DNA of 64,000 bases from Halichondria panicea (taxonomy: Eukaryota > Porifera > Demospongiae > Suberitida > Halichondriidae), in assembly GCF_963675165.1 (NCBI RefSeq), contig NC_087378.1, positions 398,562-462,561 on the forward strand. The letters are read 5' to 3'. The notes below the pieces were generated by a model. It was given only the letters and a program-made list of their open reading frames with translations. It made no database searches and was not told the DNA's origin. Every line of letters begins with the position of its first letter. Positions within the stretch are counted from its first letter, which is position 1. This document shows, piece after piece, positions 5,093 through 63,760 of the stretch. A program made the translations under genes and the position numbers.

Positions 5093-5534
5093 ATGGAATC
5101 CTTATACCCATTACAGAAATCTTGTCAACTTGCAAATATTGACAGCTATGTGCATCAAGCTGACAAGGTGCTTCGAAAGTGTGTCTCAAGGCAATTCAAG
5201 ATGCATGCTCCAGGTTATAGCATTTATAATTATGACAACAATAATTATACTGCATAGAAAATTATTACTAGTGTGGACTCCCGTATATGTAGTATTGTAT
5301 GCATGGTTGAACAACTGTAAAGATGAAATTTCTATAGGTGGAGCCATCTCCCGGGAAGATAGAGCCAAGTTAGCCAAAGATACCAATAATGTCCGTAAGA
5401 AGATTTTGGAGGAGCTGAGAAATGGTGGAATGTGTGGCAGTCAACTGGACCCCAGTGCAATAGGGCACCCACTAGAGGACAAGTTTAAAGAATTAGTTGA
5501 TGGATACTTTACCAAACTGTTAACTGAACATTAA
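5093..5534 (+). CDS. Small two-exon gene, function unknown (105 aa)
   Basis: Exon 1 5093-5213 (ATG; ends in phase 1 before GTTATA) joins exon 2 5338-5534 (acceptor TTTCTATAG, stop TAA) in one frame of 106 codons. The predicted protein is short and largely helical-looking, with many Lys/Arg/Glu residues, no signal peptide and no membrane segment; it contains YVHQADKVLRKC near residue 20 and a Gly-Gly at the splice junction. I do not recognise a family. It starts 178 bp from the FAAL-PKS start on the opposite strand, following the head-to-head pattern of the rest of the window, and ends 234 bp from the EFCAB10-like stop. Exon structure and phase agreement support a real gene, but there is no homology support. 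Confidence 0.55.
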
Positions 5535-39074: not shown

Positions 39075-39662
39075 GTGTTTGCGGTAGATCTTCCCGTAGT
39101 AAACACCAACTTTTGTAAATTGAGATAGTCAAAGAACCTCTTTGGTCTCTAGCTATAACTAAAAACTGGCTGCTTTGCACGGGCTAGGCAACACTTTCTC
39201 GCATGGACATCAGGCGGAGCAAACAGGGCTGCTAATAACATGTGGACCTCAGAATTTTTGTCTCCACACATTATATTGCCACGCAGGAAGTGCATGTTGT
39301 TCACATGCAGCTGCAGGAAATTAATGAAGGCGTATAAACACATTCAGACACGCCCACTTTTTCACACCGCTAGTTGGGCGTGACAAAACTCTGGGATTGG
39401 TCACGCCCATTATTTTAAAGCCATGTGCATTGCTTGAAGCCGGCCGAGGCTGATTGGGTCTGCGTAGCTGTGCCTTGCAGTAGGTGAAGGATTGTCCATC
39501 TCTGCAAAATACTGAAGAGTGGTAAGTCTTTTGTAACCAAGTTATCTCCCCTCAATTTAATTTAATTATGTACATAAACAAATTAAATACAGACACACCC
39601 CTCACACGTACCCCTCTTCGTACACACATTTCACAGCGTCCAAGTTCCTCCCAAGATAAAAG
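39075..39662. promoter_or_regulatory. Divergent promoter region, PPP1R3/SLC35A
   Basis: 588 bp between opposed start codons. It includes an inverted GGGCGTGAC (39376-39384) / GTCACGCCC (39400-39408) pair flanking an ATTGG (reverse CCAAT) at 39396-39400. No TATA box is obvious. Promoter function is inferred from position. Confidence 0.5.
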
Positions 39663-42600: not shown

Positions 42601-43021
42601 TAAAAAGCAAGCCATGAAATGCCACCCACTTGTGGAGAGCAGTGTCACCCATGCTCAGGATTCAACAGTGTGTTGACATCCCTTTGCAATTAAGATCAGT
42701 ACATTTTATGTTTTCGTTGAATCCTTGTGTGTGTTCAGTCAGCTTTGCATGCTGTGTACATGTGCCGTGTACATGTGCTGTGTACATGTGCTGAGTGCAT
42801 GCCAGCCACTAACAAGGATCAAGTATTGTATAATACTAGTCTATATAAAACTGTTCATATTAACCTACTACATACTCCCGTACAGGTTCTTTGTGATGGG
42901 GGCCACCTTTGTATTGCTGGCAACATTCTTGTATGGTAAGCCTCAGCCTCGAACTGACACCTCGCCAATGGCTGATCAAACTGGACATGTTGTCAAAACA
43001 AATGTTGTTAAAATTTCTTAG
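39663..43021 (+). CDS. SLC35A: UDP-sugar (UDP-GlcNAc/UDP-Gal) Golgi transporter
   Basis: Six exons: 39663-40007, 40297-40419, 40913-41087, 41329-41447, 42312-42445 and 42886-43021, 343 residues in phase. It is a multi-spanning membrane protein with the family blocks [67 protein letters not shown] and [16 protein letters not shown]. These match SLC35A2/A3 (UDP-galactose and UDP-N-acetylglucosamine antiporters); the sequence does not decide between them. Acceptors of exons 3 and 5 are both poly-C plus CA-repeat tracts. Divergent from the PPP1R3 gene. Confidence 0.94.
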
Positions 43022-43486: not shown

Positions 43487-45490
43487 TTAGGAGAATTTTG
43501 TATCTCTGTTGTGAGGTGCGTTGAAGTCAATGTCTGGGCCAATGGCCACTATTCCGTGGGGATTAATCTGCAGGTGACTCTCCTGGTAATGAAAAAGAAA
43601 ACATGATACAATAGAACATTTTACAGGTAACACAGTGCAAAAGAGCTCTGCTCTGCTATAAACCGCATGTTCAACTCCACAGTCTACATGTAGTGTATAT
43701 ACAAAACTAAACACTAAAACTCTATAGATCTGCTGCATATTTGACCCTATAAGCATTCACCCGGTGAGTTACTGTACCTGATAGTGGTGCTCGATGTGGT
43801 GTCGGTTGGTGGTATCCCCGAACCCCCTAGTCTGATAGAGGTCACGGAGGTAGTCCCACAGGTGAGGGTAGTCCATTATTCGCTTCTTATTGCACTACAA
43901 GGGTAAGAAAGTGTTCACAACGATCAAAACTGTTAGAGCAAAAAATTGGTTTAAGATTGCTTCTTTATTAGGTATGTATGAATGTAGCAATTCTTGTATG
44001 TACAGACAATGACTAGCGTATCAATAACTACAATGGTAAGAAAGTGTCCACAACAAATTAAAAGCTACTGGAGCAAAAAACTGATTCAGGAAATTGATAC
44101 GGATTACCACCTGTATAATTATACAGACAATGCCCAGCCTTATAAATCAAAATTAATGAGCCACTATTTAGGGCACCTAGCCTAATTATAACTAGGAATC
44201 AGTGGCGGATCCAGTGCAGGGCACAAGGGGCACGTGCCCCCCCTTTCTGACCAGCTCGAATAAAACTAGCACAAGAAGTGGGTGTGGCTTAGAGCAGCAA
44301 TCAATTATTGCAGCATGCAGAACAGCAGACGATCTCTAGTTGTAGACTTTTGAAGCTAAAGAGCAAAATGATTCCATCCATTTCTGCTATCTCCTGCTAC
44401 TATGTATGTCATACTGTCATCAATCAATCCATGATCAGAAAAGCTACACTGATTGGGCTTTAAAAAAACTGTTGACCTTTTTTTAGTAAACATTTTCTCC
44501 AAACTGCCCCCCCCTTTTCAAAATTCCTGGATCCGCCCCGGGAATGGTAATGTAGACGAGAATTCACCTTAAAATGGCCGACATAGACACAGTCAAAGCG
44601 TGCCAGTGTTGTGTAGAGTCTGACATCAGCCTCAGTGAGGGTGGAGCCAGTGAGATAACGACGAGTGGACAGTACCTCCTCCACACGATCGAGAGCAGCA
44701 AACACCTCACACACGGCCTTGTCATAGGCTTCTTGTTTGGTGGCAAAACCAGCTCGATACACGCCATTGTTGATGTCCCTAAATGGGGGAGGGTTTGATC
44801 AACGCTATATACATCTCTCAACACTTCTCTGTACAAGTAAGCAGCTATATTATAATTATATAATAATAATTATAATTATTATTATATTATTACAGACCTG
44901 TATGAATAAATAGTTTATGTAACATACTTGTAAATCCATTCGTTAACCTCCTCAATCTCCTTCCTCAGCTCCTGGGGGTAAAGGTCAATGGCACGCTGCT
45001 CATCAGTCTCACAGAAATCGTTAAACTCTGAGTTGAGAATTCGAAGTATTTCAGATGACTCATTATTGACGACGGTCTTCGTCTTCTTGTCCCAGAGCAC
45101 AGGGACAGTGAACCTCCCCTCGTACTCAGCGTTGGCAAGGAAGTAGATTTCCCTGAGATGCTCGAACCCATTCACAGTGTCTGGAGTAGCATCTTTGACA
45201 GCAGGGTTGAATCTCCACCCCTTCTCCCCCATGTGATAGTCGACAACATCCATGGTGATGCATTTAGTGAGACCTTTCAGTGATCGTGCAATAATAGTTC
45301 TATGTGCCCACGGACAAGCGTATGAGACGTAGAGGTGGTATCGACCACTCTCTGGGGGGAAGCCACTGCTACCATCTTTAGTGATCCAGTTTCGGAATGA
45401 GCTCGGTTTTCGGACAAATTCCCCTTTCGCATTTGCCCATTTCAATATTTCAGTGCCTTTTTTTGCTTCTGCCATCTTTGATTCGGCCAT
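43487..45490 (-). CDS. Glutathionyl-hydroquinone reductase (Xi-class/ECM4-like GST)
   Basis: Four exons: 45490-44928, 44778-44568, 43894-43778 and 43582-43487, 328 residues. YACPWAHRT at about residue 55 contains the catalytic Cys of the CPWAHR signature; downstream come VPVLWDKK, VNNESSEILRILN, the GVYRAGFA segment, LTEADVRLYTTLARFD and a C-terminal Tyr-rich helix with the TTNRHHIEHHYQ stretch typical of the family. These enzymes reduce glutathionylated hydroquinones using a Cys mechanism. Length matches bacterial and fungal YqjG/ECM4 homologues. The intron between exons 2 and 3 holds a MITE. It shares a 313 bp promoter with DCTN1. Confidence 0.93.
44200..44545. mobile_element. MITE with CAGTGGCGGATCCAG termini
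   Basis: Starts CAGTGGCGGATCCAG and ends in CCTGGATCCGCCCCGG, imperfect terminal inverted repeats about 345 bp apart, with poly-C-rich subterminal segments. No open frame of note. A degenerate relative (end GATCCGCCACTG) is at about 56170-56322. Confidence 0.7.
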
Positions 45491-45803
45491 GTCTGCAACA
45501 ACTTGTTTAATACTTGTCTTGATGGAGGAGCACTTTTATTGAGCAGCACTGTACAGTGCACAGTCCTCTGTGCATGATTTGTGACGTAGGCAGTCAGTGC
45601 AGTTGGGTACGGGTGGAGCTGGTCTCCTCGATAATAGCCGCAGTTATGGCACCTTCTGGAAATGATCATTAACCTAACAAATGAATTATTTCTACCAAAA
45701 TCAGTGAATATTTTAATATTTCTTAATTATAAACAACCACTTTTACTGTGTTTAGAGTTTAATAAAGTATCCAACCAACTATAGCTAGCTAGCTCTAGCT
45801 ACA

Positions 45804-48800
45804 ATGGCTGAAGGATCGGGAACGGAGTTTAAAGTGGGCATGAGGGTCACAGTCAAGGACAAGGGCTATGCTGGGACCATCAGGTGAGGCCAAGAATGCT
45901 CACCATTGTAAATATGGCATGTATGGAATATCTGTGTTATCTCCTATAATCTATACGTGTACCTGACGATGATGGGTACGTTTATAACTCATACTAATAT
46001 CGACTGTGGTATAGGTTTCTAGTGTAGCCAGATGAGGGGGTTTAGTATTATATTCACTGTTTCCCCCCCCCCCCAGGTATGTTGGCGTAACCAAGTTTGC
46101 CCCTGGCAAGTGGGTGGGGGTGGAGCTGGACGAGCCTAAGGGCAAGAACAACGGAGCACTCCAGGGAAAGACATACTTCATGGCCAGAGACAACTACGGA
46201 ATATTTGTCAGGCAGAACCAGATTCTGGTAAGAGAATTTGTTATTCGAGCTCTTTTTAAATTCTCAGCTGGAGGGGTTGTATCAGTGACCTAGTTATCAA
46301 TTGGTTGAGGTGCCAAGTTTTTTCTCTGGCTATAGTTTATAACTGTGTGTAACTTGCTGTCATGACCCTTTACCCACTCTTCAGGCCATACCCAGTGTGA
46401 ATGCTCCTGGGGGCTCTGGGGCACAGTTGAAGAGGCCACTATCTGGCAAGAAGTCCCCCCAGCCCTCTCCTCCAAGATCTGTCCGTCCATCCAAAGAGTC
46501 CCCTCTCCTCGCGTCCCAAGAGGGGCGGAGGAAGACACTCGAGGCTGGCACTGCTAAGAAGGGCAAGAGTGGATCCAGTAGCGGGTCACAGACACCAGAG
46601 CCAACACCTGTGAGTAGTGCGTAGGGTGGTGTGTGTGTGGGTGGTGTGTGTGTGTGTGAGTGATGTGTGTGTGGGTAGTGGGTAGATTGTGGATTTTGAG
46701 AAGCATCGTTTGAAATGTAATGTGTTACTAATATTTAGCTATCTTGTTGTTTCTCCTCCCCTGCAGAAGTTTGCTCCAGAGCCTGCCGCCGTGCCTAATG
46801 AGGTCACTGATCTCCAGCAGAGACTGGCCATCTTACAGGGCAAGAGAGCCGAGGACAAAACCAAGATCAAGGAACTCGAGAAGTACAAGGCCCAGTTCAA
46901 CCAGGTCGGCTAGAATATGGTAGCAGCACATTTTAAATGGTGGCCCAGTGTCAGTTAAGATCGTAATGTGAATGAACAAGCCTATGCAGATTATTGCACG
47001 TGCTTTGTTTTTCATCTTCCATAGATGATGGAGTACAAGCAGAGGTGGAGTGAGTCACAGACAGAGCTGCAGCAGCTACTCAAACTGGCTAAAAAGGTTT
47101 GTGTCCCTCACTGTCTAGATGTGACCATACACACACACACACCCACCTACACCACACACACACCCACACACACACTGTGCAGGAGGCCCGAGAGTGGCAG
47201 CTGGCCAAGGAGAAGGCAGAGGAGGAGTTGGGGGATTTATCTGATGCCGTGGAGATGGCAACTCTTGACAAAGAAATGGCCGAAGAAAGGGTGAGAAATA
47301 GCCACTTATAGTTGTGAGGTTCATAGCTAGTCTAATAGGCAGCACTTGAGTACATGTATGACAAGACCAAACCTTAGCCATAACTGATTGTTTTGAACTA
47401 AAGCGTTACAGTATCGTATTGTTTTGCTCGATCTCTTCAGACTGAGAGCCTCGAGTCAGAGAATGAGGCACTAAAGGAGAAGGTAGAGGAGCTGACCATT
47501 GACCTGGAGATTATCAAGCAGGAGATCAGTGAGAGTGGCGTAGAGGGAGCAGCTGCCAACGCTCAGTTCAAGCAGATAGAGCAGCAGAACTCAAGACTCA
47601 AGGATGCTCTCGTTAGGTGTGTGGATATAATATATCTGCCATAACTAGAGTTAGGAATTACATGTATATCCGGTAATAAATGCATTCCAAAGCTCTCTAA
47701 GCGACTCCAAGTTCCAAGTTTATGGGCTTTCAACTGAAAATTGGCTAAATCAAAAATATTGGCATACCTAATTATACATGTACTGTATGTCCTCACAACT
47801 CCTGGTACTACAGAATGCATGTTTTATCATGTGCTTCTAGTCTTAAGTTCAAGTTATAGTTTATGAATAATTGATAATGTAGCTTACTTGTACATATGAT
47901 TGTACATGTCTAGTGGCCCAACGTGCTGACCTAATACATGTATGTTGCTGTCTCCACTGTCACAGGCTTCGAGACCTGTCAGCCCAGGACAAGCTAGAGC
48001 ACCAGCGAGTGGTCAAGGACTTGGAGAAGAATGCGTCAGAGCTGAACCAACTCAAAGAGGACAGAGATAAGATAGCGAAGGAACTGCAGGTCAGAGCAGC
48101 ATACGTAACGTTGAGTGCTCATAACTTGAGTTAGGATTGTGTTTTTTCACAATTAAAAGTAGCCCTTTGAACTGTGCGTCTTGTGTTTAGATCAATGATT
48201 TGCTCTTAAATCCATTCTCAAAGAAAAGGCTTTGTCTCTTTTGGTGACCTAAACATTTGCAGTTGTAGTTGTGTATTACAAGTTTGTCACAAACTGCTAG
48301 AATGACAGCTACCGTCAGTACAACATAACCCCACCCCCTGTAGGAATCTGATGAGATCATTGACGAGCTCAAGGAACAGGTGGACATTGCCCTAGGCGCT
48401 GAGGAGATGGTGGAGAAACTGACTGACACTAACCTCGAGTTAGAAGAGCAACTGAACACGCTCACAGACACGGTGGCCGACCTCGAGGCCCTCAGGGACT
48501 TGAGTGAGGAGCAGGAAGAGCTGCGGATGGAAGTGGAGCATGAACTGAGGGAGGAGCTAGACCTCAGCCTCAACAGCACTAGACAGGTACACAGGTGGGG
48601 GGGAGAGGGGAGGGGGGGGGTCACTAGAGAGGAAACTTTAATTTGCTGGCATGCCAATACATTGCAAAATAATGCTTCGTTCTCGAGTTTACGCCTAGTT
48701 TTGTTGTTTTACTTGGAATTCTACTCTTTCTATTACTGTACATTCACACATGTGTACTGTGTATCTTGCAAATGTTGTTTGGTCTTTCGCTCCTAGTGAA

Positions 48801-49894
48801 TTGTGTACCATTATTAATGGACCACCTTACAATGTATGTAAGCTAGCTCACAGTTTACCAGCCTTTACTATAATTATAGGGACTCTTTCTGTCTTCTACT
48901 GCACTTGCAAATATTTCACACGCCAGGTGGAGCGCAAACTTGATGCAGCCCAAGAGACCATAATTGATCAGCAACAGACGATTGAGAAGTTTCGAGAGCT
49001 GGTCCACAATCTCCAGTCTGATCTGACTGACCTGCGAGAGCGTGGGGAGAGGGCTGGGGACAGTGGGAGCAGTGGGACGGACACTCAGAAGGTCATGAAC
49101 CTCAACGTGCAACTCAAGTCTGCCATCAAGGCACAAGCGAGGGTGAGTGTGCATGTGCTACTGTATCTACTAGGCTATAGTACTGGGGGAGGGCACTATT
49201 TGAAGTGTGAATTAAGGTATACAGTTGTTGTTTTTTACTCTTCTGAGAGTGTATTTTCTGTTCCTCGAGTGTTTTGGTTGTTTCTCTTCAGACGATTGAC
49301 TTTGAGTTGCGTAAGCTGGACGCACAACAAGCAGCTGAGCATATCGACCTTCTCAACTCCTTCATGCCCAACTCATTCCTCGTCAGCGGAGGTACGTTGT
49401 AGGTAGCAGCTGTAATACATTAGTACCACTAGTAGCCACTACCCGACATGCTTACAGTCTTATAGGAGGGATGTCGTTGTACACATACATAGTTAAGGAC
49501 ACAGCATACGTAGTGTAAGGGTTGGCACAATTTCCAGTTTTGTGGTAGCAGCATTGTTCTGATACCACCAACAGTTGTTTTAAAATCCACCAGTTTGATT
49601 TTCGTACGGTAGCAGCATTAATTGTACCACCAACAGTTATTACCATTTCAACCACCCCCCTCCCCCCAGGGGACTATGATGCCCTGTTGGTGCTCATGCT
49701 TCTCCCTCGACTGACCTTCAAGGCGGACATGCTCAAGGATCAGCTGAGACAACAACATAAACTGGACGAGGCTCTCGGATCATTGAGCACCCTCACACCC
49801 CAGCAAGCAGACCAGTTGACCTTTGTACTGGCACTGGTGTACAAGCTGAGCACACTGCAGCTGCTCGTGGCTCGGGCAACAAGGTGAGACAGTG

Positions 49895-49927
<33 letters not shown>

Positions 49928-52900
49928 AACACCTAAAAATGTAAAAAAAAGTTTCCCTAAAATAAACCTCCACTGTAAAGCCTCGTATTCACACAATGTT
50001 GCCACATTGACTTCAGCTGTGCAAGTTAGTGATTATGTGTACAAATAAGTATGCCTTTACTCTTGTCTATACTTTTGTAGGATTCTGAATGAGTGTGATG
50101 TGGGGCTGTATCGTGGAGTGGGCGGGGTCAGAGATGACCTCAACATCCACGAGAAGGCTCTGGACATTCTCATAGAGCTCCTCAAGAAGGAACAGGTGAG
50201 AAGAGGGGCGTGGCCAGGAGAGGGGCGTGGCCAGGAGAGGGCTATAATTATACTATAATATCTTGTAACCTCTCTCAGTGCATGTATTCGTACTATACAG
50301 TACATATGCGTGCCACTGTGTGTGTCTGTGTTCTAAAGGTGACCTCTGTGTCTTGTGTCCACAGCTGGATGAGAGTGTACCACTGCACGGACTGGACAAA
50401 GCCATCACTCACTTCGAGGTATGCTCAACACCCAAAATACAATTTTAGTTTTATCAAGATTTTGGCCTGATATTCTAGATAATTATTAATTAGTACAGCA
50501 ACTCCCCTGGCACAAAGTAGCATTGATATCTGTAGGCAAAACTGTTGAATGAATATTTTCTTTGCCGTGTACAGAACCTCCTCACTACACGGCTACAATA
50601 CGAGACCCCCCTCAGCTGTGGGAAGTCAGAGGACCTCCTGTCTAGAATGAGTGTCCTCTCCTCTGGTTGTGACTTCCTCTCTATTGAGCTGCTTCGTCTG
50701 AGGGGGTTGGGGCAAGAGGGCGGAGTCTGGGTCACTCAAATCAAAGAGATGGAGAGCTTTAACAATGATCTCAGACAAGCTTGCAGGAAGGTATACTTGT
50801 GTGTGTGGGGTGTGTGTGTGTGTGTGTTGTGTGTGGGTGTGAATGGGAGTTTTGTAGGATATGGAGTTACTTTAATTTTCCAATTTTCACTTAAACCTGC
50901 TCTAAATCTAAAAACTTGGTTATTTCTCCCAGATTCGCCGCAAGGTACCTGCCTCTAACTCTCGTCGCATGTTGAGGTACGACAGCACAGTGAGTGAGAC
51001 TCTGAACAAGACAGGGCAGAGACAGCTGGTCCTCATTGATGCTTTCAAGGCACTCCACCTCAAGGCCAGTCAGAAGGCTAACAGTCTCACTGGTGCGTTA
51101 CCTGTACTATACGATAAATACTAGGTGATCAAATAAAAAAAGCTTTTATATCTGTTACAAGTTCTAGATTAAATACACCTTTCGTAGTCATAATAATTGA
51201 TTGCAGGCTCTGAGAAACTAACGAGTGGTGAATTGGAGGGGCTTACTCGTGAGGTGGTGACCAGTGGAGCTCTGTTGGAGTTTAGCATTGAGGGGAAGGA
51301 CGCTAAGGAGCAGCTGCGTGCTAACATGACCACCAACGCCACCTCTCTCGATGGATTCCTCGTCTCTTTAGGGGAGGGGATTTACGACACACAGGCCACT
51401 AAGTCTAAGGTGTGTTTAATGTGTCACATGACATTCACATGACTAATAAGTAGTAGTCTTTTGCTAACTTGTTGTACCTCGTCTGACCAGAAGCCCCACC
51501 CCCTTGCGTAAGATTAAGCCAAACTAAAAAACAAGGCCCTGCCCGGATTCGAACCGGTGATACTAGAAGCCACAGAGCCTGGTATATTATACTGTGTGAT
51601 ATATTGCACTGTGTTTGCAGCCCGAGGCTCCGGCTGTTGTGAGGGCTAGAGCTGTGAAGGCGGAGCTTAGCGATGTAGAGGGGCTGGGCTTTAAGCTGGA
51701 GGAGAGACGGAAGGACATCATGGAGCTTAAAAAAGCTCTCAAAATGAAGGTTAGTGGAGTAGTGGTCATTATCTCCGTCTGTACTCTAACCTTATACATG
51801 TACATGTAGTTAATTTCGTAACAGTACATGTACCCACTCCCTCCCCCCCCTCCTACACACATGCATTACTTTATTAACCCTTTGTTTCCCCGGCACAGGG
51901 CCAGGAGCTGAGCGAGGCTGGAGTGAAGATAGGGTTACTGGAGAAGAAGGTGGAGTCGGCTGATGGCGAGTGTGATAAGAAAGTGGGTGTGGAGAGGGAG
52001 GAGCAAGACAGGTTGCGGAGGGTCATGGATGAGCAAGAAAGGTGGGGCTTGTATATACACTAGTGTGCCAGTGGTCACAGACACAGAACAGAAGAGTGTA
52101 GCTATAGCCTTTGTTTTTTCTCTGAAATTAGCCTGTTTTGGGGGGTAACTTTGACTGCCTATGACTTGAGTTAGGATTGTCCAATATCACAACTAAAATA
52201 TGCATTTAGTAGCTCTTTGATAGAGCTTCAAGATGGTATATTTAGATCAATGATTGCTTTCGGGCCCAAGCCTTCCATTTTTGAAGAATAAGTATGGGCT
52301 ATTGTTATGCATTTTAAACCCACCCCTCCAGAAAGTTCAACAAGACCATTGAGATCTTGCAAGGAGACATAGAGGCTCTTGAAAATGATAAGACATCGCT
52401 GGAGAAAAAAGTCGAGGTTCAGTCGAAACGAGGCATCTTATCGGACATTACGGTTGCCGGGAGACGCACCCTCGGGGGTAGGGGAAGTCCCTACTCGAGT
52501 CCATTCAGCAGCCCAAACATGCCACATCGTGACAGTAGTGGGAGTGTGAGGAGTGGAGGAAGTGAGGCTGTAACTGTTGACAACACGCTACAGACACCGC
52601 TCCTCTTGTCGAGGGTAAGTGTGGAATCTATCTAGATAGTTAATGAGCTGGCTTGAAGTATAATTATTATATTTCCCCTACAGATAGAGTCTTTGAAGAA
52701 AGCTCTCGGCTTCTCCCAGCATGACAACTTCAAGCTCAAAGCACAGATAGCCAAGGTAAGTGCATGCAGCTGCTTGTATATTGCTACACTGCAATCCCCT
52801 CTCTCTCCATAGGCTCAGCTCAACTCTCTGCCTCCATTGCACGTGCCTAAGAGGCTGATTCACAAGAGGAAAGAGGAAGATGACAAAGATGGAGACAATC

Positions 52901-54028
52901 AGACCGATCATGAGAAGTCTGTACTCAAACGAACAGCTGCCCTCATTGAGGTTAGAAAGTATAATTATGAGTACTAGAGTCGACTCTCTAACTAGAGTTT
53001 TGGTAGTCCCAATTCAATTATTTTTTACGAAAGCTTATAAGGAGCTCTTTCAGATGGTATGCTCAAATCAAATTTGGAACGGGCCATAATTTCTCATTTT
53101 CCGAAAAAGACCACGGAATTTTGTCAAAAAACAGGCCCAAATAGACTTTCAATTTTAACACATCATCTGCAAAGCCTCTCTCTAAGCTTTCGGAAAATCA
53201 TAAAATTAACGTTATTGAACCAACGGAACTAAAGTCATGGTTGTTCAAAGATGCTTCACTTAACGTTAGCTGACATTACTAATTTGCTGCTACGAGTGTA
53301 CATGTACGTACAGTAGTGACCTGTACTTTGTTTCCACAGGATATAAAGAGGTTCTCGTTGCCCAAAGTCATCTCTCTAGACGTTGGTGTCCCTGCCGACA
53401 AGAAGCCTTCACCGAGGGAACAGCTATCTAATCAGGTTGCCAACATCTTTGAAATGCAACGTCAAGCTCAGCAGGTTAGCTACATGCAGTCAGACTAGCC
53501 GTCTTTATAAGTGTTAATTCTTATTGTCCCGACCCAGCTCAAGGAAGATGTGACTAGACTGATAGCCAGTAACTACCCTGGTGGCGTCATCTCTACACAG
53601 CTGGCTTCTTTCACCTCCCCACAATTTGCAAAGGTGTGTGCACTAGTAGCATATGTTAGTGTTATCAGGAGCATTATTAGCAAGAAAGCACCACTAGCTA
53701 GAGCAACCACACCACCAATCACAGCTTTAGTGCATGATAATAATCGAACTGCACACATTTTTAGTAGCATTGATTGTGGAATTTAGTCATGAACCACTGG
53801 CAGTCTACACATTGTTATTATTCTTTTTCTCTCACAAACAACTGTTTGTATTATGACCATTTTTTAACCTTTCTGTAGGCCCTGAATGAATCTACCCAGC
53901 CGTCTGTCCTGGCCGCTCGACTGAAGCTCCCACTACCCCCCGGGCAGCGGCAGTCATGTGGGGGGTCTCATCGCGTTGTGGTCAGTCCAGCTCAGTTCTC
54001 TCTGTTGCACTCCAGCGTGATCAGCTGA
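45804..54028 (+). CDS. DCTN1: Dynactin subunit 1 (p150Glued)
   Basis: Twenty-five exons, 1,247 codons, all phases consistent: 45804-45883, 46077-46227, 46385-46609, 46767-46904, 47025-47096, 47183-47290, 47441-47616, 47966-48089, 48344-48586, 48927-49142, 49292-49391, 49670-49883, 50081-50195, 50365-50418, 50575-50790, 50933-51092, 51207-51409, 51621-51749, 51899-52041, 52332-52614, 52684-52755, 52813-52950, 53340-53474, 53538-53633, 53879-54028. Exons 1-2 encode the CAP-Gly domain (GYAGTIRYVG, KNNG in place of KNDG), exon 3 the basic Ser/Pro-rich region, exons 4-10 coiled coil 1, exons 11-17 the globular intercoil domain ([20 protein letters not shown]), exons 18-20 coiled coil 2, exons 21-25 the C-terminus ending SSVIS, close to human RLIS. 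It links dynein to microtubules and the Arp1 filament. Length matches human (about 1,278). Confidence 0.97.
51541..51590 (-). pseudogene. tRNA-like relic in DCTN1 intron 17
   Basis: On the minus strand, ACCGGTTCGAATCCGGGCAG is a perfect T arm and B box, but the anticodon arm is missing. The equivalent intron of the duplicated copy (about 62480-62550) keeps a longer form with a degraded T arm. It is a decayed tRNA or a tRNA-derived SINE fragment. Confidence 0.5.
52990..53260. mobile_element. Foldback element in DCTN1 intron 22
   Basis: Related to the element in HSPA9 (11992-12300): shares GGGCCATAATTTCTCATTTT and the right arm ending AACTAAAGTCATGG. Arms are more diverged here. The duplicated copy is at about 63785-64000. 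Confidence 0.6.
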
Positions 54029-54687
54029 CTGTGAACAGATGTGTAGTGTTAAATTGAACATAATTATTGTTATAATTTATTATGAACAAAAACTTCCTAA
54101 TTTGTGGGCGCATAGATATTCTTATATCATTGTAAATAATATATAGTATAATTATTGTATCTACATAATAGTTAGACACTGTTTAGGAAGTTTCTACATG
54201 ATTTAGAAGCCCAAAGGGCTGGTTGTAGTATCCCGAACGCAGTGAGGGTTCTACTAGCCCTGAGGACTTCTAAATCATGTGGAAACTTCCTAAACAGTGT
54301 CTAAGCATTTTAGATCATAGCAACCATGAGTATTTAGCCAATCAGATTTGAATGTTCTTATCTAATCTTTGCTACATGATTTTCTAAGTGAAGTACATGA
54401 TTTTCTATTGAAGTACATGATTTTCTAAATTGGATAGAACATTTCTTCTAACCAATCAGATTGCAGTATTTATGACAAACATGATCTAATGCCTAATTAG
54501 ATAACATTGTTGGAATCATTGTAGTCATGTCATGTGAATAATTTGTCTGCACTAGCTTAAAACACATGGAAGTTGCTTGTGCAACTAAAGCTGTGCATGT
54601 AGCTAGCATATAGCTACTCCATGCATTGTTTCTGCTCTTATTGGACTGACTTGACTTTCTGAAGTTTAAGTTGCAATTGATTGCACA
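54029..54687. other. Intergenic region upstream of the chimeric gene
   Basis: 659 bp holding the hairpin element and, at about 54375-54435, three tandem GAAGTACATGATTTTCT-like units; AACCAATCAGATT near 54460 could act as a CCAAT box. No coding exon seen. Confidence 0.6.
54174..54303. repeat. Hairpin element between DCTN1 and the chimera
   Basis: Inverted arms AGACACTGTTTAGGAAG... and ...CTTCCTAAACAGTGTCT of about 36 bp surround a 55 bp loop that contains a second, shorter inverted pair (GGGCTGGTTGTAG / CTACTAGCCC). Probably a small foldback element; it lies in the possible promoter of the chimeric gene. Confidence 0.8.
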
Positions 54688-57600
54688 ATGATTGTCCTGT
54701 GGTTGATGTGGACCTCACTGTCCCTTGGATCAGGAGTGGAGATCACCCTCACACAAGACAGCATCCTCTGTCCAACAGTTGCTGCTGCTGGTCGGTTCTG
54801 CTCCACTCTGAATGATCAAATCTCGTCAACTGAACTAATTCCGGACAATTCTGTCATCAATTTCATGCCAGGCACTCACAAGTTTTTCAATACCAGTGGA
54901 ATAAATGCTTTTATCATTGAAGACGTGCACAATATCACTCTCGCCGGAATTGGTGGGTTTTGCGAAATTGTGTGTGAGGACCGAATGATTTTCATGTTCA
55001 TGAATGTAACCAATTTAACTATTTCAAACTTGAGTTTTGTGAGCTGTGGTGGGCCGATTCCATGTGATATTATACGAACTTTACAAGCTTCCGAATCCTT
55101 TTTCTCTGTATCTGACTTCCCCTACATAACACTGTTTCTAAATGACATTGAAAACCTCCAATTACTGAGTGTGAATGTGACTGGATATGGTCGCAATATA
55201 GATCTAATGGGGAACTCTAAATTCCGATTCAATAATTTCAATTTCCAGAAGAGGGGGTGCTCCATTCCCGAGTCGTATGGTCAACTCACATGTGCCGGTG
55301 GAGGGTTCGCTATAGGGTACACTGACACACCCACTTGTGAGGTTGCTAGGGATATGCAAACATTGGACATTGTCTCTAGTTATAAACGACGAAGCATTGA
55401 TAATGTAGCCTACTTGTACATATTTTTTACATGTCTAGCGGCCCTTATAACGTGCCGAGAATTATGTTGCTGTCTCCACTGTCACAAGCTCCGAGACCTG
55501 TCAGCCCAGGACAAGCTAGAGCACCAGCGAGTGGTCAAGGACTTGGAGAAGAATGCATCAGAGCTGAACCAACTCAAGGAGGACAGAGATAAGATGGCAA
55601 AGGAACTGCAGGTTAGGATTGTGCATTTGCATTTTGTAGCTAGCCCTTTGAAATACATGTACCTATCTAATAATGTGTGTTAAATCAGTGATTGCTTTCA
55701 GATTGTAAAGAAAACTTATTGGTTATTTTTTTCAAAATCGACCTGTTTTGAGTAAAATAACAGCTACCTTCATGACCACCCCCTGCAGGAATTTGTTGAG
55801 ATCATGGACAAGCTTAAGGAACAGGTGGACATTGCCCTGGGCGCTGAAGAAATGGTGGAGAAGCTGACTGACACTAACCTTGAGTTAGAGGAGCAACTGA
55901 ACACGCTCACAGACACGGTGGCTGACCTCGAGGCCCTCAGGGACTTGAGTGAGGAACAAGAAGAGCTGCAGATGGAAGTGGAGCATGAACTGAGGGAGGA
56001 GCTAGACCTTAGCCTCAACAGCACTAGACAGGTACACAGTTGGTGACTAGAGAGGAAACTTCCCATTTCTAGCCTGAAGTGTTCATAATGCTAAGCCTAG
56101 TTGTCTGTGCAGTTTCAGTGACTATGAAGGCTAAAAACTCTCCAGCGTAGTGCATGCAGATTGCTTATGAAAAGTGATGACCTTTTTTTAGGAACAAATT
56201 CGGAGTGCGCATGCTCACTGTTTTGAAGGAGTGACAACCTTTTTTTTAGGTAAAATATCAGTCCTTTATCCGCTCAGAGCCCTGGAATCCCCCTTTCAAG
56301 AATCCTAGATCCGCCACTGAATTGTGTACAGCTGTTTGCATAGACCTTGTAAAATACTAAATCAGCTCACTGCATTACCACAAAACCACCATACTACATG
56401 TTGTTTGCATAGTCCTAAGCAATATTAAATGGGTACTTTTTGAGGGCTCCAAAAATGGCTAATCTGCGGAGACCCTCAAAAATTACCCGCTGTAAGGTTG
56501 TATCAATATTATAGTAAATGCTCTCACAATCTACTCTTGGTGGTATGGAAACTCACATACAAATTATGGTAAGGATCTGAAGTGGAGAATGGGCTGGGAC
56601 TAGCTTGCATATACCAGCAGATATAATATACATGTAGCTACTAATCTGTCCACTAAATGTATGGAAAGCAGTGTGAAGGCTGAAGAAACTGCTAGTACAA
56701 AGTACCTCAGATCACAAAAGACTGATAGTTTAAGCCTGCTGCTTATACGAGAAATGTGAAATGTCTTGTTGGTCAAACCGATATACCACAGTGAGCGAGT
56801 CAGCCATCTGCAGGTTCCTTAGCGTAACAATTTTTCGTTCAGGATGCAAGTCTCAGCACAAGGTGTTGGTAGACCATTCTCCACATCAAATCCTCTCCGG
56901 TTCTATTAGTTTCCATAGTCTAGTTCTAGAAGCCATCATTGCTCTTCTTATTATAACTATACTACATGCATGTACATGTATTTATACTATTTGTTTGCAT
57001 AGCAATATTGTATGGTGGTTTTGTGGTAGGTATGATTTAGCAAAGTCTATGCAAACAGCTGTATCTGGGTCAACCATTATGACCACCTTATGTAAGCTCA
57101 CAATCTACTAGCTTTCACTTCTATACCATTATTAATGGACCATCTTACAATGTATGTAAGACCACAATCCACCAGCCTTCAATAACTATTGTAATTTTAG
57201 TGAGCCTTCCTCTGACTGCACTCGCAAATATTTCACACGCCAGGTGGAGAGAAAACTTAATGCAGCCCAAGAGATCATAATTGATCAGCAACAGACGATT
57301 AAGAAGTTTCGGGAGCTGGTCCACAATCTCCAGTCTGATCTGACTGACCTGCGAGAGTGTGGGGAGAGGGCTAGGGACAGTGGGAGCAGTGGGACGGACA
57401 CTCAGAAGGTCATGAACCTCAACGTGCAACATGTAGGGTACTATTTTTGTTTTGCATTTTCTGTTACTCAAGTGTTTTGGTTGTTTCTTTAGACGATTGA
57501 CTTTGAGTTGCGTAAGCTGGACGCACAACAAGCAGCTGAACATATCGACCTTCTCAACTCCTTCATGCCCAACTTATTCCTCGTCAGCGGAGGTACGTTG

Positions 57601-60600
57601 TAGGTAGCAGCTGTAATACATTAGTACCATTAAAGGCCACTACCCGACATGCTTACAGTCTTATAGGAGGGATGTCATTGTACACATACATAGTTAAGGA
57701 CACAGCATAGATAGAGGAGGGGACCGGGTTGTATAGCACCACAATTTCCAAAATCCACCAGTTTGATTTTTGTATGGTAGCAGCATTAGGTGTTTTGATA
57801 CCACCAACAGTTATTGCCATTTCAACCACCCCCCTCCCCTAGGGGACTATGATGCCCTGTTGGTGCTCATGCTTCTCCCTCGACTGACCTTCAAGGCCGA
57901 TATGCTCAAAGATCAGCTGAGACAACAACACAAACTGGACGAGGCTCTTGGATCATTGAGCACACTCACACCCCAGCAAGCAGACCAGTTGACCTTTGTA
58001 CTGGCACTGGTGTACAAGCTCAGCACACTGCAGCTGCTTGTGGCTCGGGCAACAAGGTGAGACAGTGCGTGTGTGTGCGTGTACAACACCCATAATGTAT
58101 ATGCCCTAAAGTATAGTAAGCCTCCATTGTAAAGCCTTAACACAGCTTTGCCACATTGATTTCAGCTGTAGCATATAGATAAGAAGGGAGAGGGATTGAA
58201 AACGCTATGTAAAGAGCATTGATGATCCGCGTTTTGGTCAATTTTTTCTTCTTTATTTCCTCCAGCCTATGTTTCTAGCTAGTACTCGGTTATAAACTAA
58301 CAATCTAATTGGGCTGCAAGTTTTCTGCAGTTGAAACAAAAATGTATATTGTCATGAGACAACTACGTCGAGCAAGTCCTCCGTTTCACACATTTACTCA
58401 TCAGGCAGGGAGGAGCAGGTCCTCTCCCCAGGCCTGATCGATCTGGGGTAGGTCTTCTGTTTCACATTATACCTTCCACTCCAAACAGGGGGTTGCACGT
58501 CCTCTCCCCTTGGTCCATCCAGGGCCTGGGGCACAGCGTAAGTTGCGATGCACGCTCGGCATTGGCGCAGTTTTCCCACCACCCCTGAGTAAGGCTCCGA
58601 GCCTTTAGAAAGCATATAGATGCCAATCACTTTGCAAACCCCCGGAAGAGGCCTACGCTAACAGCATAGCCCTTGCATGGCTGGCATAGTATTCTCACAG
58701 TGCATGATTTAGCAATACAATGCAGTGCACCTGTTAACAAATTTCCTGCTGTGTTGGCGGGGTGGCTGGAAGTGAAACACAGATCAACAGACATGCATAA
58801 CACAGAAGTTATTGTGCGCACATGCTCCGTTTCCAATCCCCCTCCCTTTATCTCTGTGGCTAAAAGGGCACAAGTTATAGTAATTATGTGTACAAATAAT
58901 AATAATGCCTTTACTCTATAGTCTAGCTATTATTCTTTGTTCATTGATAATCTGTTGTGTTGTAGGATTCTGAATGAGTGTGATGTGGGGCTGTATCGTG
59001 GAGTGGGCGGGGTCAGAGATGACCTCAACATCCACGAGAAGGCTCTGGACATTCTCATAGAGCTCCTCAAGAAGGAACAGGTGAGGAGAGGGGCATGGCT
59101 ATGAGAATGGGAGTGGCCAGGAGAGGGAGGTGGTGGCCATTGTCATGAAACCCTCTAAGTCTCTTAGTTGGGCGGAGCTCAATCCTGGACGCTCACGTAG
59201 CGTCCAGGATTGCATGAGCTCTGCCCAACTAAAGTAGTCTCACACCCAGCCCCGATTAATAAATAGGTCTGGAGAACTTCCTATATCAGAGTTGTGCACC
59301 ACCCAAGTGGTGATAATAAACAGTGCCGGGTCATAAATCCATAGTTGATGACCACAGTTTTTTTTATCTATGAACATTTTGATGCACAAGCAAATAGGAC
59401 AGACAAGTGTAGCTAAAGAGCTAATAATGAAGTCTGAAAAATTATAAATGTTTTGATAGACGTGATTTATATTTGAGCTACTAGATGGAATAAGCAAAAC
59501 AATTCTAGTGACAGTGCTTTGTTTGCAGCTACTGCTAGCTTTAGTGTTCAAAGTGGTTTGGGCATTATGAGACAGGGGGGGTATTATGAGACAGGAGGGG
59601 GGTATTATGAGACAGGGGGGTATTATGAGACAGGGGGGATATTATGAGACAGGGGGGGTATTATGAGACAGGGGGGGATGTTATGAGACAGGGGGGATAT
59701 TATGAGACAGGAGGGGGTATTATGAGACAGGGGGGATATTATGAGACAGGGGGGATATTATGAGACAGGAGGGGGGGGGTATTATAAGACACCATTGCAA
59801 TTTAACGCTAATTGGCATATAGAACTTATTCTGTCACAGTTATTCCTGTTTTAACAGATACCTAGTGATTTGGCACCCACTCAATTAAAATGTTTTCTCC
59901 AATTAAATTCTGTACTTAATTAATTGATTGCGGTATCTCTGTCAACACAAGCATACAACTCCAAATTTTGGGGGAAAAATACTAGCGAGGTAAGTGCTAT
60001 TACTACATTTTCAGTTTGACCTCTGAGATCATGTTTTTGCTTTCTGTAAAAAGTCCACGAGCAGTTCTGCTGCTAAACATCTCATATCATAGGTACTATA
60101 GGTACACAAGCATGAAAAAACGCTCTGTGTACCTCTAGCTACTTCACGACAATCAAGATTATATTTTCTCAAAATGGTACTCACCATCAGGAGGCATAAT
60201 TATGTTTAAGTGTTAGAGGGGTCTTTAAGAAGCATGTATTGGACACAATAAGTTTCCCGGGTTTTTTGCGGGAGTTTTAGAAGCGAAACACAGAATTTCA
60301 GAGCCACTACGTAGACTTCAATCTTCAATATACAAGCATCACGTGAACCGCTTCCATTGCCAATCCCTCTCTCTTCAATCTATGGTCTCAGTTGCATCTA
60401 GCTTAACTTCTTTTCCTTCTTTTTGCCTCGAAATGACCGCAGCGGTTAACACGCCAACAAATCCTTGGCGTGTGAATACAACTCATTGATAGGAATTTCT
60501 CCATACCCTTTTTTCGACCTAGCGTTCCAATAAGGGCTGGTGTGAGACTACAGTGCATCAGCCCATGTACCGTATTTAAGTTGACGTATATATAGAACAG

Positions 60601-63600
60601 TACAGTAACATACATATAGATATAGCCACTGTGTGTGTGTGTGTGTGTGCGTGTGTGTGTTCTAAAGGTGACCTCTGTGTCTTGTACATGTGTCCACAGC
60701 TGGATGAGAGTGTACCACTATATGGACTGGACAAAGCCATCACTCACTTCGAGGTATGCTCATTAATTGCCCTGGCCAACACACCCAAAATGCAACTTTA
60801 TAGTTATATGTCAAAATTAGTACATTTTGGCCTGTCACAGATCTTTGATTAAGCTACATGATATATATTTTTATACCACACTTACGTCACCATTAATTCA
60901 TCTCATTGGTCAACAGCTGTAGAAGAATAACATACAACCCTGGGCATGCACAGTTTTCTAGGTGTTTTTCAATTGTTCAAGAAAGTAAGCAAACAGAAAA
61001 GAGCCATGCTTGACGGTACTAAGACTCCAAAGCGACGGCAGAATCACGGAAGCTGCTCTCCAACAAGATGGTTAATTAAGCCTCCATCGGTTAATGGGTA
61101 TGGTTAAAAACATTTTTGCCAAGAAGAGCTTGCAACTGCAGCAAGGGACGTCAAATGCACAACGCTTGGACCAAAGAAGCTCCTGAGCATCTGCAGGAGT
61201 CGACGTGTTGCTTAACTAGCTCTTGACGGCTACAAAATCCCGGCATAGTCTTGCTCTTTTTGCAGTAGTATACATTGTGGATTGAATTGTTGCTAGAGGG
61301 AGATCCTTTTATAGTACTGCTGCGGTCACGTGGTATAAGTCAGATATGCCACACCTACTCGAAGATATGCACTCGGCCTGTATATCCTCCTCATAGGTGT
61401 GGTATATCCTATACTAATTCCCCTCCCCTACAAAAGTGGCTGAATGTAAAATGTACTGAATATTTTGTCAGAATCTCCTCACGACACGGCTACATTACGA
61501 GACCCCCCTCAGCCGTGGGAACTCAGAGGACCTCTTGTCTAGAATGAGTGTCCTCTCCTCCGGCTGTGACTTCCTCTCTATTGAGCTGCTCTGTCTGAGG
61601 AGGGCGGGGCAAGAAGGCGGAGTCTGGGCCACTCAAATCAAAGAGATGGAGAGCTTTAACAATGACCTCAGACAAGCTTGCAGGAAGGTATACTTGTGTG
61701 TGTGTATGTGTGGGGGGGGGGAGGGGTGCGAATGGGAGTTTGTAGGGTAGGGATTTATTAGTTATCACTTTTTAAAAGTACTAGCTGCTCTAAAAACTTG
61801 GTTGTAATACCATGTAACTATGACTACCCATCCTCCCAGATTCGCCGCAAGGTACCTGCCTCTAACTCTCGTCGCATGTTGAGGTATGACAGCACAGTGA
61901 GTGAGACTCTGAACAAAACAGGGCAGAGACAGCTGGTCCTCATTGACGCCTTCAAGGCACTCCACCTCAAGGCCAGCCAGAAGGCTAACAGTCTCACTGG
62001 TGCGTTGCATAATAATACTAATATTCTACTCTAGATGATCAAATGGAAAGAAGCTTTCATCAATTACAAGTGTTCTAGATTAAATACATGTATCATAATT
62101 ATAGTATCCTCTTTTATTCGTAGTCATAACAATAATAATTAATATTGATTGCAGGCTCTGAGAAACTAACGAGTGGTGAATTGGAGGGGCTTACTCGTGA
62201 GGTGGTGACCAGTGGAGCTCTGTTAGAGTTTAGCATTGAGGGGAAGGACGCTAAGGAGCAGCTGCGTGCTAACATGACCACCAACGCCACCTCTCTCGAT
62301 GAATTCCTCGTCTCTTTAGGGGAGGGGATATACGACACACAGGCCACTAAGTCTAAGGTACATTGTGTGTTCAATGTGTCACATGACATTCACATGACTA
62401 ATAAGTGGTAGTCTCTTGCTAACTTGTCATACCTCCTCTGACCAGAAGCCCCACCCCTTTGCGTAAGCAAACTAAAAAAAAAGGCCTAACCAGATTTAAA
62501 CCGGTGATACTAGACAGGAACTAAGAACTAAGCCAACAGAGCCTGATACATTGTATGCAGCCCGAGGCTCCGGCTGTTGTGAAGGCTAAAGCTGTGAAGG
62601 CGGAGCTTAGCGATGTAGAGGGGCTGGGTTTTAAGCTGGTGGAGAGACGGAAGGACATCATGGAGCTCAAGAAGGCTCTCAAAAGGAAGGTTAGTGGAGT
62701 AGGTACTTATTTCCGTTGGAACTTTAATCCATAACGTCAGTTTCATAACAGTATATATACCCACTCCCCCCCCCCCCACACATACATTACTTTATTAATC
62801 CTTCCCCGGCATAGGGCCAGGAGCTGAGCGAGGCTGGAGTGAAGATAGGGTTACTGGAGAAGAAGGTGAAGTCGGCTGATGGCAAGTGTGATAAGCAAGT
62901 GGGTGTGGAGAGGGAGGAGCAAGACAGGTTGCGGAGGGTCATGGATGAGCAGAAAAGGTGGGGCTTGTGTATACGCTATAGTTTGCAATCTTCTTTCAGT
63001 TGTTTTCTTCGAAATTAACCTGTTTTGGGGGGTAACTTTGACTGCCCATAACTTGAGCTGGGATTGTCCAATATCACAAATAGAATGTGCATTTAGTAGC
63101 TCTTTGATAGAGCTACAAGATGGTGTGTTTAGGTTAATTGATTACCAAATCTTCCATTTTTAAAGAAAAAGCATTATTATGGATTATTCCCACCCTTCCA
63201 GGAAGTTCAACAAGACTATTGAGGTCCTTGAAAATGACAAGACATCGCTAGAGAAGAAAGTCGAGGTTCAGTCAAAACGGGGTGCCTTATTGGACATTAC
63301 GATTGCCGGGAGACTCACCCTTGAGGGTAAGGGAAGTCCCTACTCGAGTCCGTTCAGCAGCCCAAACATGCCACAGACACCACTCCTCCTGTCAAGGGTA
63401 AGTATTGAACCTCTCTAGATAGTTAATGAGCTGGCTTAAAATATTATTTTCCTCCTGCAGATAGAGTCTTTGAAGAAAGCTCTCGGCTTCTCCCAACATG
63501 ACAACTTCAAGCTCAAAGCTCAGATAGCCAAGGTAAGTGCAGCTGCTTGTTTATGTATTGTAACCACTTAATTAGTTACACTGCCTCCACCTTCATTCCC

Positions 63601-63760
63601 CTCCACCCTTCTCTCTCTATAGGCTCAGCTCAACTCTCTGCCTCCATTGCACTTGCCTAAGAGGCTGATTCACAAGAGGAGAGAGGAGGATGACAAAGAT
63701 GGAGACAATCAGACCGATCAAGAGAAGTCCGTACTCAAACGAACAGCTGCCCTCATTGAG
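54688..63760 (+). CDS. Chimeric gene: secreted beta-helix-like domain fused to dynactin p150 copy (3' end outside window)
   Basis: Exon 1 54688-55611 (308 codons) is one open frame. It encodes a signal peptide (MIVLWLMWTSLSLGSG), about 215 residues of a Cys- and Asn-rich, parallel beta-helix/pectin-lyase-like ectodomain, a hydrophobic segment (VAYLYIFFTCLAALITC), a Cys cluster, then dynactin coiled coil from LRDLSAQDK. Further exons match DCTN1 exons 9-22: 55789-56031, 57244-57432, 57493-57592, 57843-58056, 58966-59080, 60700-60753, 61472-61687, 61840-61999, 62155-62357, 62561-62689, 62815-62957, 63202-63397, 63461-63532, 63623-63760. Total 1,032 codons so far with no stop and no frameshift. 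CAP-Gly and basic regions are absent. The intron-derived part is 55396-55486. Transcription is unproven; an unexpressed but recent duplicate is the main alternative. Confidence 0.72.
56170..56322. mobile_element. Degenerate MITE fragment
   Basis: Ends CTAGATCCGCCACTG and contains GACCTTTTTTTAGG, like the inner part and terminus of the element at 44200-44545. Left end unclear. Confidence 0.45.
56328..57063. mobile_element. Inverted-repeat element, about 735 bp
   Basis: Left terminus TACAGCTGTTTGCATAGACC and right terminus GTCTATGCAAACAGCTGTA are imperfect inverted repeats extending about 70 bp, including CCACAAAACCACCATAC and its complement. No transposase frame seen. Inserted in the copy's intron after dynactin exon 9. 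Confidence 0.75.
58057..58965. other. Enlarged intron in the chimeric gene
   Basis: 909 bp against 197 bp in the parent. The extra sequence includes two similar GGTCTTCTGTTTCACA / AAGTCCTCCGTTTCACA segments near 58375 and 58450. No element class recognised. Confidence 0.55.
59165..59232. repeat. Near-perfect 68 bp palindrome
   Basis: TAGTTGGGC...ATCCTGGACGCT, a CACGT centre, then AGCGTCCAGGAT...GCCCAACTA. It abuts the left end of the inverted-repeat element at 59234. Confidence 0.85.
59234..60552. mobile_element. Inverted-repeat DNA element, about 1.3 kb, non-autonomous
   Basis: Left end GTAGTCTCACACCCAGCCCC and right end GGCTGGTGTGAGACTAC are inverted; weaker similarity extends inward (GAACTTCCTAT / ATAGGAATTTCT). 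It carries a G-rich minisatellite and no transposase frame. It accounts for most of the 1.6 kb intron between copy exons 13 and 14 (parent intron 169 bp). Confidence 0.65.
59571..59788 (+). repeat. G-rich minisatellite (TATTATGAGACAGGGGGG)n
   Basis: About 11-12 units of 18-22 bp, each TATTATGAGACAG followed by a G run of varying length and occasionally an A. Not CRISPR-like: no unique spacers, eukaryotic context. Confidence 0.95.
60872..61400. mobile_element. Probable inverted-repeat insertion
   Basis: TATACCACACTTACG at the left and AGGTGTGGTATA at the right are short inverted ends, with a further GCCACACCTA inside. It enlarges the intron between copy exons 14 and 15 (718 bp against 156 bp). 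Ends are tentative. Confidence 0.4.

What the first reader, a model, noticed from the sequence alone, without database searches (positions are those of the whole stretch)
54688..63760. Chimeric gene: signal peptide and beta-helix ectodomain joined in frame to dynactin p150
A 924-nt open frame begins with a signal peptide and a beta-helix-like extracellular module and ends in the DCTN1 coiled coil, then continues through 14 more dynactin exons with all phases kept. The result is a predicted membrane-anchored p150 lacking the CAP-Gly domain, immediately downstream of the intact parent. I know of no described protein with this arrangement. If expressed, its cytoplasmic part could compete with or recruit dynactin at a membrane (inference). 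Vertebrate p135 also lacks CAP-Gly, but by alternative splicing.
Basis: partly seen in the sequence, partly recalled or inferred. Interest (0 to 1): 0.88.

Follow-up and report, generated by a model that had tools for sequence, protein, structure and literature searches.

The report
Chimeric dynactin gene from tandem duplication
A duplication joined the front of a cell-surface protein gene to the back two-thirds of a motor-protein partner gene (dynactin p150), and the joined gene has kept an open reading frame, with its possible membrane-spanning piece made from former intron DNA.

Summary
From 54688 an 18-exon open frame (14 exons after the first in the window, 3 beyond it) encodes 1158 residues: signal-like start, part of a beta-helix ectodomain, a hydrophobic stretch, then dynactin p150 from CC1B to the C-terminus. 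The intact donor of the ectodomain starts 1.1 kb past the window, so the order is dynactin / chimera / donor: one tandem duplication with breakpoints in a dynactin intron and in a coding exon of the neighbour. The hydrophobic stretch is former intron. A public contig whose sequence differs from this assembly carries the same join, so an assembly error is very unlikely. Introns of the two copies differ by 101 indels, 83 not multiples of three; the copy's exons have only in-frame ones, and change in the dynactin part is far below neutral expectation; the ectodomain part shows no such constraint. The copy was therefore kept as coding. Transcription, membrane insertion and function are untested; a soluble product from an internal start is the main rival. 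The mode of origin is known (Drosophila Sdic); this protein architecture was not seen in the papers searched.

The parts
54688..55375 (+). 5' part of chimera: signal-like start and first ~229 residues of a beta-helix ectodomain, copied from neighbour gene B (intact at L009:1195-3110 + 3246-5304, just outside the window)
55376..55488 (+). former dynactin intron now coding (residues 230-267), including hydrophobic stretch VAYLYIFFTCLAALITC; last base is first base of old exon g
   Evidence: aligned to the parent intron end; parental acceptor cacag|G is cacaaG here; the parent sequence has stops in the chimera's frame (read)
55489..55611 (+). dynactin exon g (start of CC1B), fused in frame; holds a new in-frame ATG at 55594 (residue 303)
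   Evidence: 119 of 124 nt of exon g identical to parent; ATG
55789..56031 (+). dynactin exon h
   Evidence: GT-AG, 93.4% identity
57244..57432 (+). dynactin exon i, 27 nt shorter; old donor lost, new donor CAT|gtaggg keeps the phase
57493..57592 (+). dynactin exon j
57843..58056 (+). dynactin exon k
58966..59080 (+). dynactin exon l (100% identical to parent)
60700..60753 (+). dynactin exon m
61472..61687 (+). dynactin exon n
61840..61999 (+). dynactin exon o
62155..62357 (+). dynactin exon p
62561..62689 (+). dynactin exon q
62815..62957 (+). dynactin exon r
63202..63397 (+). dynactin exon s with in-frame deletions of 21 nt (seven residues of CC2) and 66 nt
63461..63532 (+). dynactin exon t
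63623..63760 (+). dynactin exon u; exons v, w, x follow at L009:209-343, 407-502, 736-885
45804..54028 (+). intact parent dynactin p150 gene: 25 exons, CAP-Gly at the N-terminus
   Evidence: Pfam CAP_GLY 7.3e-24 and Dynactin 1.9e-61
47851..55375 (+). first copy of the tandemly duplicated unit (dynactin intron to B codon ~229); second copy is 55376 to about L009:1915
   Evidence: start placed by eye within about 20 bases
54160..54480 (+). MITE-like inverted-repeat element between the parent's 3' end and the chimera's ATG, absent upstream of intact B

Best explanation
One tandem duplication of about 7.5 kb, with breakpoints in a dynactin p150 intron and in a coding exon of the neighbouring beta-helix/multi-TM gene (B), left intact dynactin upstream, intact B downstream and a B-front/dynactin-back chimera between them (shown by sequence comparison). 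At the join the old splice acceptor is gone and one continuous frame runs through about 38 codons of former intron (shown as the present state; the order of changes is inferred). The chimera has been kept as a protein-coding gene (supported statistically). It most likely makes, from a copy of B's promoter, a type I membrane protein: signal peptide, truncated beta-helix outside, intron-derived membrane segment, and in the cytosol p150 from CC1B to the C-terminus, without CAP-Gly, basic region or CC1A (inferred). With CC1A gone, CC1B should be exposed for dynein intermediate chain and LIS1, so the product would tether or titrate dynein-dynactin at a membrane, possibly as a heterodimer with normal p150 (inferred).
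For: Gene order and matches. Complete model, 18 exons, GT-AG throughout, no internal stop. Same join in a public contig, 107 of 107 residues identical from residue 225 on. Indels: introns and 3' flank 101 (83 not multiples of 3) in 2454 aligned bases; dynactin exons 3 (27, 21, 66 nt) in 18 exons; B part 4 gaps (6, 9, 3, 15 nt). All 7 exon gaps are multiples of 3. Dynactin part dN/dS 0.195; 44 changed codons on both branches against means of 102 and 105 for a neutral copy branch alone (minimum 73 and 78 in two sets of 1000 runs). Expected new stops there 5, seen 0 (P 0.008). The join is at about human residue 377 and CC1B as modelled at 391-543 is retained. A CC1A/CC1B hairpin is described as autoinhibitory in PMC7615804 (passages). 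B upstream sequence is recognisable before the chimera's ATG (75.6% identity over 209 columns).
Against: No transcript or protein data. TM evidence is weak: no helix in the AlphaFold model there, and 29 of 235 open 38-codon stretches of the parent's introns are about as hydrophobic (KD 1.9 or more). The B part shows no amino-acid constraint: 28 changed codons against 27.3 for a neutral copy branch, dN/dS 0.47, and its lack of stops is uninformative (1.17 expected, P of none 0.32). Changes in the dynactin part are only slightly rarer at sites where parent and human agree (9 of 242) than elsewhere (21 of 404), and the chimera looks faster than the parent: human agrees with the parent at 9 and with the chimera at 2 of 30 comparable differences. 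A run of 171 columns without mismatch (P 0.012) suggests local gene conversion. Exon i lost nine residues at about human 559-566, the beginning of the ICD. The intron indel rate may exceed that of exons for reasons of base composition.
Confidence: 0.6

Rival explanations
1. The copy is coding, but its product starts at the new internal ATG (residue 303, 55594) and is a soluble p150 lacking CAP-Gly and CC1A; the ectodomain part is only 5' leader.
For: The parent has ATA at this place and the chimera ATG, in context aagATGg; P0001 also has Met. The dynactin exons are constrained but the B part is not at the amino-acid level.
Against: The four gaps in the B part are all multiples of three, three of them on the chimera's side by comparison with B, P0001 and the family consensus (by inspection), which is not expected of a leader. 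The first ATG (54688) has A at -3 and opens the same frame.
Confidence: 0.17
2. A decaying copy: coding for most of its history, now losing function.
For: Changes at sites shared by parent and human p150 (S595L, C742R, R766C in human numbering), faster evolution than the parent, loss of part of exon i; transposon-like insertion upstream.
Against: No stop or frameshift in 18 exons and all splice sites present, including a replaced donor; the first exon is also open in P0001, which covers no other exon.
Confidence: 0.14
3. The product is not anchored: the hydrophobic stretch fails to stop transfer, or splicing (for example from 55039 to the shifted acceptor at 55487-55488, both in phase 0) removes it, giving a lumenal or secreted protein.
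For: Weak TM prediction; GTGAGC at 55039 and the AG at 55487-55488 are in phase by my count.
Against: That donor has T at -1; P0001 has Asn where the chimera's donor-like codon gives Ser, so that haplotype probably lacks it; a lumenal p150 gives no reason for p150-like constraint.
Confidence: 0.06
4. False tandem duplication made by joining two haplotypes in assembly.
For: A haplotype misjoin would give this order of pieces.
Against: A public contig with the identical join but 26 of 326 aligned positions different upstream, so not a copy of this assembly (inference; its sample is not named); 11% intron divergence, 101 indels, introns up to 1.4 kb longer; copy-specific splice changes.
Confidence: 0.03

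Closest known systems
Drosophila Sdic (AnnX-Cdic chimera; PMC3395120, passages read)
   Same: Chimera lying between its two intact parents, one of them a dynein-machinery subunit (dynein intermediate chain); new 5' exon with a novel N-terminus after mutations, deletions and insertions; a transposable element inserted upstream
   Different: Sdic coding sequence comes from one parent only (the other gave promoter material) and is repeated four times, with product found in the sperm tail; here both parents contribute coding sequence, plus a signal-like start and putative TM, single copy, expression unknown
Chimeric genes from tandem duplications in Drosophila yakuba (PMC5460883, abstract read)
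   Same: Tandem duplication creates chimeric gene structures with new regulation
   Different: Studied there by RNA-seq in a population sample; no RNA data here, and this copy has diverged (dS about 0.12)
Shortened dynactin 1 isoforms: p135 (named only in the listing; its lack of CAP-Gly is recalled) and DCTN1B (PMC5574551, abstract and one section)
   Same: p150 products with weakened or missing N-terminal microtubule-binding parts
   Different: Isoforms of one gene, DCTN1B lacking only the K-rich domain; that they keep CC1A and are soluble is recalled. Here a separate gene lacks CC1A and has a signal-like start and putative TM
Duplicated dynactin1 genes in Brachycera, ray-finned fish, some nematodes, Rhizopus and Mucor (PMC3583065, 12 of 25 passages)
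   Same: Second dynactin1 gene in one lineage
   Different: The words fusion and transmembrane do not occur in that paper's main text

Membership tests
Dynactin subunit 1 (p150Glued) | Dynactin domain (Pfam PF12455, ICD) | tested here: met
   first 806 residues of chimera given: 5.7e-51 over residues 418-689
Dynactin subunit 1 (p150Glued) | N-terminal CAP-Gly domain | tested here: not met
   no match in chimera, parent 7.3e-24
Dynactin subunit 1 (p150Glued) | CC1B with intermediate chain, LIS1 and motor sites | tested here: met
   human 391-543 covered; 7 substitutions against parent within the three sites (sites); binding itself not tested
Dynactin subunit 1 (p150Glued) | Assembly into the dynactin shoulder | not testable with these tools
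   C-terminal region retained apart from 7- and 22-residue deletions
Tandem-duplication junction chimera | Intact parents on both sides, chimera between, both breakpoints inside genes | tested here: met
Beta-helix / multi-TM family of gene B | Beta-helix N-terminal region | tested here: met
   sequence matches to family members; model and structural second look
Beta-helix / multi-TM family of gene B | Signal peptide | tested here: inconclusive
   only hydropathy was computed (residues 1-19, KD 1.43); no signal-peptide program was run
Beta-helix / multi-TM family of gene B | C-terminal multi-TM domain (8 TM-like stretches in intact B, residues 888-1228) | tested here: not met
   present in B; that part of B is not in the chimera
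Type I membrane protein | Stop-transfer TM segment | tested here: inconclusive
   KD19 1.92; no helix in the model

The most novel reading that the evidence does not exclude
A selected, membrane-anchored dynactin arm: a new gene whose TM segment arose from an intron, and which carries CC1B without its CC1A inhibitor, so that a surface or endomembrane protein permanently offers a dynein-LIS1 docking arm without a separate adaptor.
Probability: 0.33. Interest if true: 0.76.

Novelty: new variant of a known kind. Interest (0 to 1): 0.56.

Why it matters
If translated as read, it is a natural experiment in wiring the dynein-dynactin machine directly to a membrane protein, with the CC1A inhibitory half removed at a domain boundary, and an example of a membrane segment born from an intron. 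It also parallels Sdic, so chimeras of dynein-machinery genes by local duplication would have arisen in two distant animals. Both parents and the chimera lie intact side by side, which makes the history readable.

Tried and rejected
Assembly artefact: considered first; put at 0.03 because a public contig carries the join. That contig is 1615 bases, and its protein is a mosaic: of 38 alignment columns (gap columns included, residues 17-229) where chimera and intact B differ, 13 agree with the chimera and 25 with B, in blocks. This may be gene conversion, another haplotype, or a mixed assembly in the B part; it cannot make the join.

A third dynactin copy: not found with a 673-residue query (exon g to part of exon s). 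All 22 matches at E 1e-5 or better (27 candidates scored) fall in the two copies on contig C2 (first try, not answered, repeated unchanged).

Parent exons spliced to the copy's exon g as alternative 3' ends: unlikely, because the acceptor AG of exon g is lost in the copy.

Amino-acid selection on the ectodomain: tested, not shown.

Selection for a TM from an intron: of 1850 overlapping 38-codon stretches of the parent's introns 235 are open, and 29 of those 235 reach KD 1.9, so hydrophobicity alone is weak evidence.

The same fusion elsewhere: one search of 5.8 billion proteins returned one protein at E 0.001 or better among 1616 candidates. No other sponge genome could be searched. The third protein search was not used, because hits are clustered at 90% and parent and chimera exons could merge.

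Rows dropped: BLAST pieces under 60 columns or out of order were left out; the 'intron' class there includes the 3' flank to 54170; the 7-base exon insertion listed I took for an alignment edge at the exon i deletion and did not count; the 27- and 66-nt deletions are not listed there and come. In one search gap columns were ignored in runs. In one search exon w of the copy was missed by a search bound; corrected. In one search, 14 of 44 differences had no human residue.

Literature for this architecture: the listings (titles, starts of abstracts) showed none; each lists at most 12 papers, and only open-licence PMC papers are held.

Full report
OBSERVATION. The frame 54670-55683 is open and 54688-55611 can serve as a first exon. 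Models with splice sites give 25 parent exons (45804-54028) and 18 chimera exons (54688 to L009:885). The chimera encodes 1158 residues with one stop, at the native dynactin end. The parent has CAP-Gly and Dynactin domains.

ORIGIN. A search of the animal's own genome with the fused exon gave 19 matches: three strong ones on contig C2 (itself, the parent dynactin exon, and an 87%-identical match to residues 1-232 about 1.1 kb beyond the window) and 16 weak ones (25-34% identity) to other family members. The third strong match is gene B: two exons, 1324 residues, with 8 TM-like stretches near the C-terminus. The comparison is that of one tandem duplication: 47870-55375 is repeated as 55396-65853 in extended coordinates. 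The order intact dynactin, B-front/dynactin-back, intact B follows directly. With a 673-residue p150 query, all 22 matches in the genome fall in these two copies.

THE JOIN. B similarity ends at 55375; intron similarity runs from about 55377 by eye. Residues 230-267 are former intron. The parent has stops in the chimera's frame there (read), so, if the parent's intron is the older state, the frame was opened by substitutions and indels after the duplication. The old acceptor cacag|G became cacaaG, so the intron end can no longer be removed at its old site. The hydrophobic stretch lies wholly in this part.

IS IT REAL. A search of 5.8 billion proteins with the fused exon returned one protein at E 0.001 or better among 1616 candidates: P0001, 324 residues from a 1615-base ENA contig, crossing the join. 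It aligns at 300 of 326 positions; from residue 225 to 331 it is identical, 107 of 107. Upstream it is a mosaic of chimera-like and B-like blocks. So a different sequence record, probably another haplotype, has the fusion with an open first exon; it covers no later exon.

IS IT MAINTAINED. Between parent and copy, introns and 3' flank differ at 11.0% of 2454 aligned bases with 101 indels, 83 not multiples of three; exons differ at 4.4% of 2686. The exons carry three deletions (27, 21, 66 nt), all in frame. The 27-nt one removed a donor, and a new donor keeps the phase. The 21-nt one removes seven residues at human 1019-1025, in CC2 (988-1088 is called its C-terminal half in PMC7615804), so a heptad register could be kept (inference). 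The B part has gaps of 6, 9, 3 and 15 nt, all in frame. If half the intron indels fell on the copy and exons mutated alike, about 45 frameshifts would be expected in its dynactin exons (my arithmetic); none is seen. dN/dS is 0.195 in the dynactin part and 0.47 in the B part. In simulation a neutral copy branch alone gives means of 102 and 105 changed codons (minimum 73 and 78 in two sets of 1000); 44 are seen on both branches. For the B part 28 are seen against 27.3, so no constraint is shown there. Against a clean story: changes are only slightly rarer at residues where parent and human agree (9 of 242 against 21 of 404), human agrees with the parent 9 times and the chimera twice, and one run of 171 columns without mismatch points to local gene conversion (P 0.012).

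ANATOMY. The dynactin part starts at about human residue 377. In PMC7615804 (passages read) constructs take CC1A as 214-354 and CC1B as 350-547; CC1B sites are LIS1 420-455, intermediate chain 458-478 and dynein motor 480-521, and the CC1A/CC1B hairpin is described as autoinhibitory. The chimera keeps the modelled CC1B, most of the ICD (nine residues at its beginning are deleted), CC2 and the C-terminus, and loses CAP-Gly, the basic region and CC1A. Substitutions within the three sites number 3, 1 and 3. In PMC5574551 (abstract and one section) a CC1 fragment binds dynein at nanomolar affinity and lowers its time on microtubules. This suggests, by inference, that the chimera would titrate or tether dynein. 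The ectodomain piece is modelled with strands at pLDDT 91-94 in residues 51-120 and resembles beta-helix sugar enzymes on a second look (fold names recalled), though Foldseek alone gave no match at E 0.001. The TM stretch has KD19 1.92 but is not modelled as a helix.

RIVALS. A new ATG at residue 303 in a good context allows a soluble short product. The in-frame gaps of the B part argue for translation from the first ATG. A decaying copy, a lumenal product and an assembly error are ranked lower in the Rival explanations section.

COMPARISON. The mode of origin is known: Sdic lies between its intact parents Cdic and AnnX, with a refashioned N-terminus and a transposable element upstream (PMC3395120, passages). 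Here a MITE-like element of about 320 bp also sits upstream of the chimera. Duplicated dynactin1 genes are known in several lineages (PMC3583065, passages). No paper with a membrane-anchored or ectodomain-fused p150 appeared in the listings, which cover open-licence PMC only.

VERDICT. The gene structure and its origin are firm; maintenance as coding is well supported for the dynactin part and, by its in-frame gaps only, for the ectodomain part; a membrane-anchored p150 is the most natural reading of the frame but unproven.

Noticed in passing
window 54160-54480: About 320-bp inverted-repeat (MITE-like) element: 40 places at 96-100% identity over nearly the whole length, this one included, and two more at 93 and 88% (only 40 of 839 candidates scored), so probably recently active.
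   Followed up: partly
L009:1195-5304, L011, L012: Gene B belongs to a very large family of about 1300-residue proteins (beta-helix, cysteine-rich part, multi-TM domain), several with a single open frame of about 1300 codons. 1408 homologues in one capped search, none named among the 120 listed. It looks like an undescribed receptor family.
   Followed up: partly
P0001: The public version of the fusion is a block mosaic of chimera-like and B-like ectodomain sequence, suggesting gene conversion between the chimera and B.
   Followed up: partly
window 53531-53701: 171 aligned columns without mismatch between parent and copy, spanning exon w and flanking intron.
   Followed up: partly
window 59560-59774: 19-bp G-rich tandem repeat (11 copies) inside a 1.6-kb intron of the chimera that is 169 bp in the parent.
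   Followed up: no
window 44460-45535, minus strand, and 39660-43021, plus strand: Open frames that resemble a glutathione S-transferase and a nucleotide-sugar transporter (names from memory, frames).
   Followed up: no
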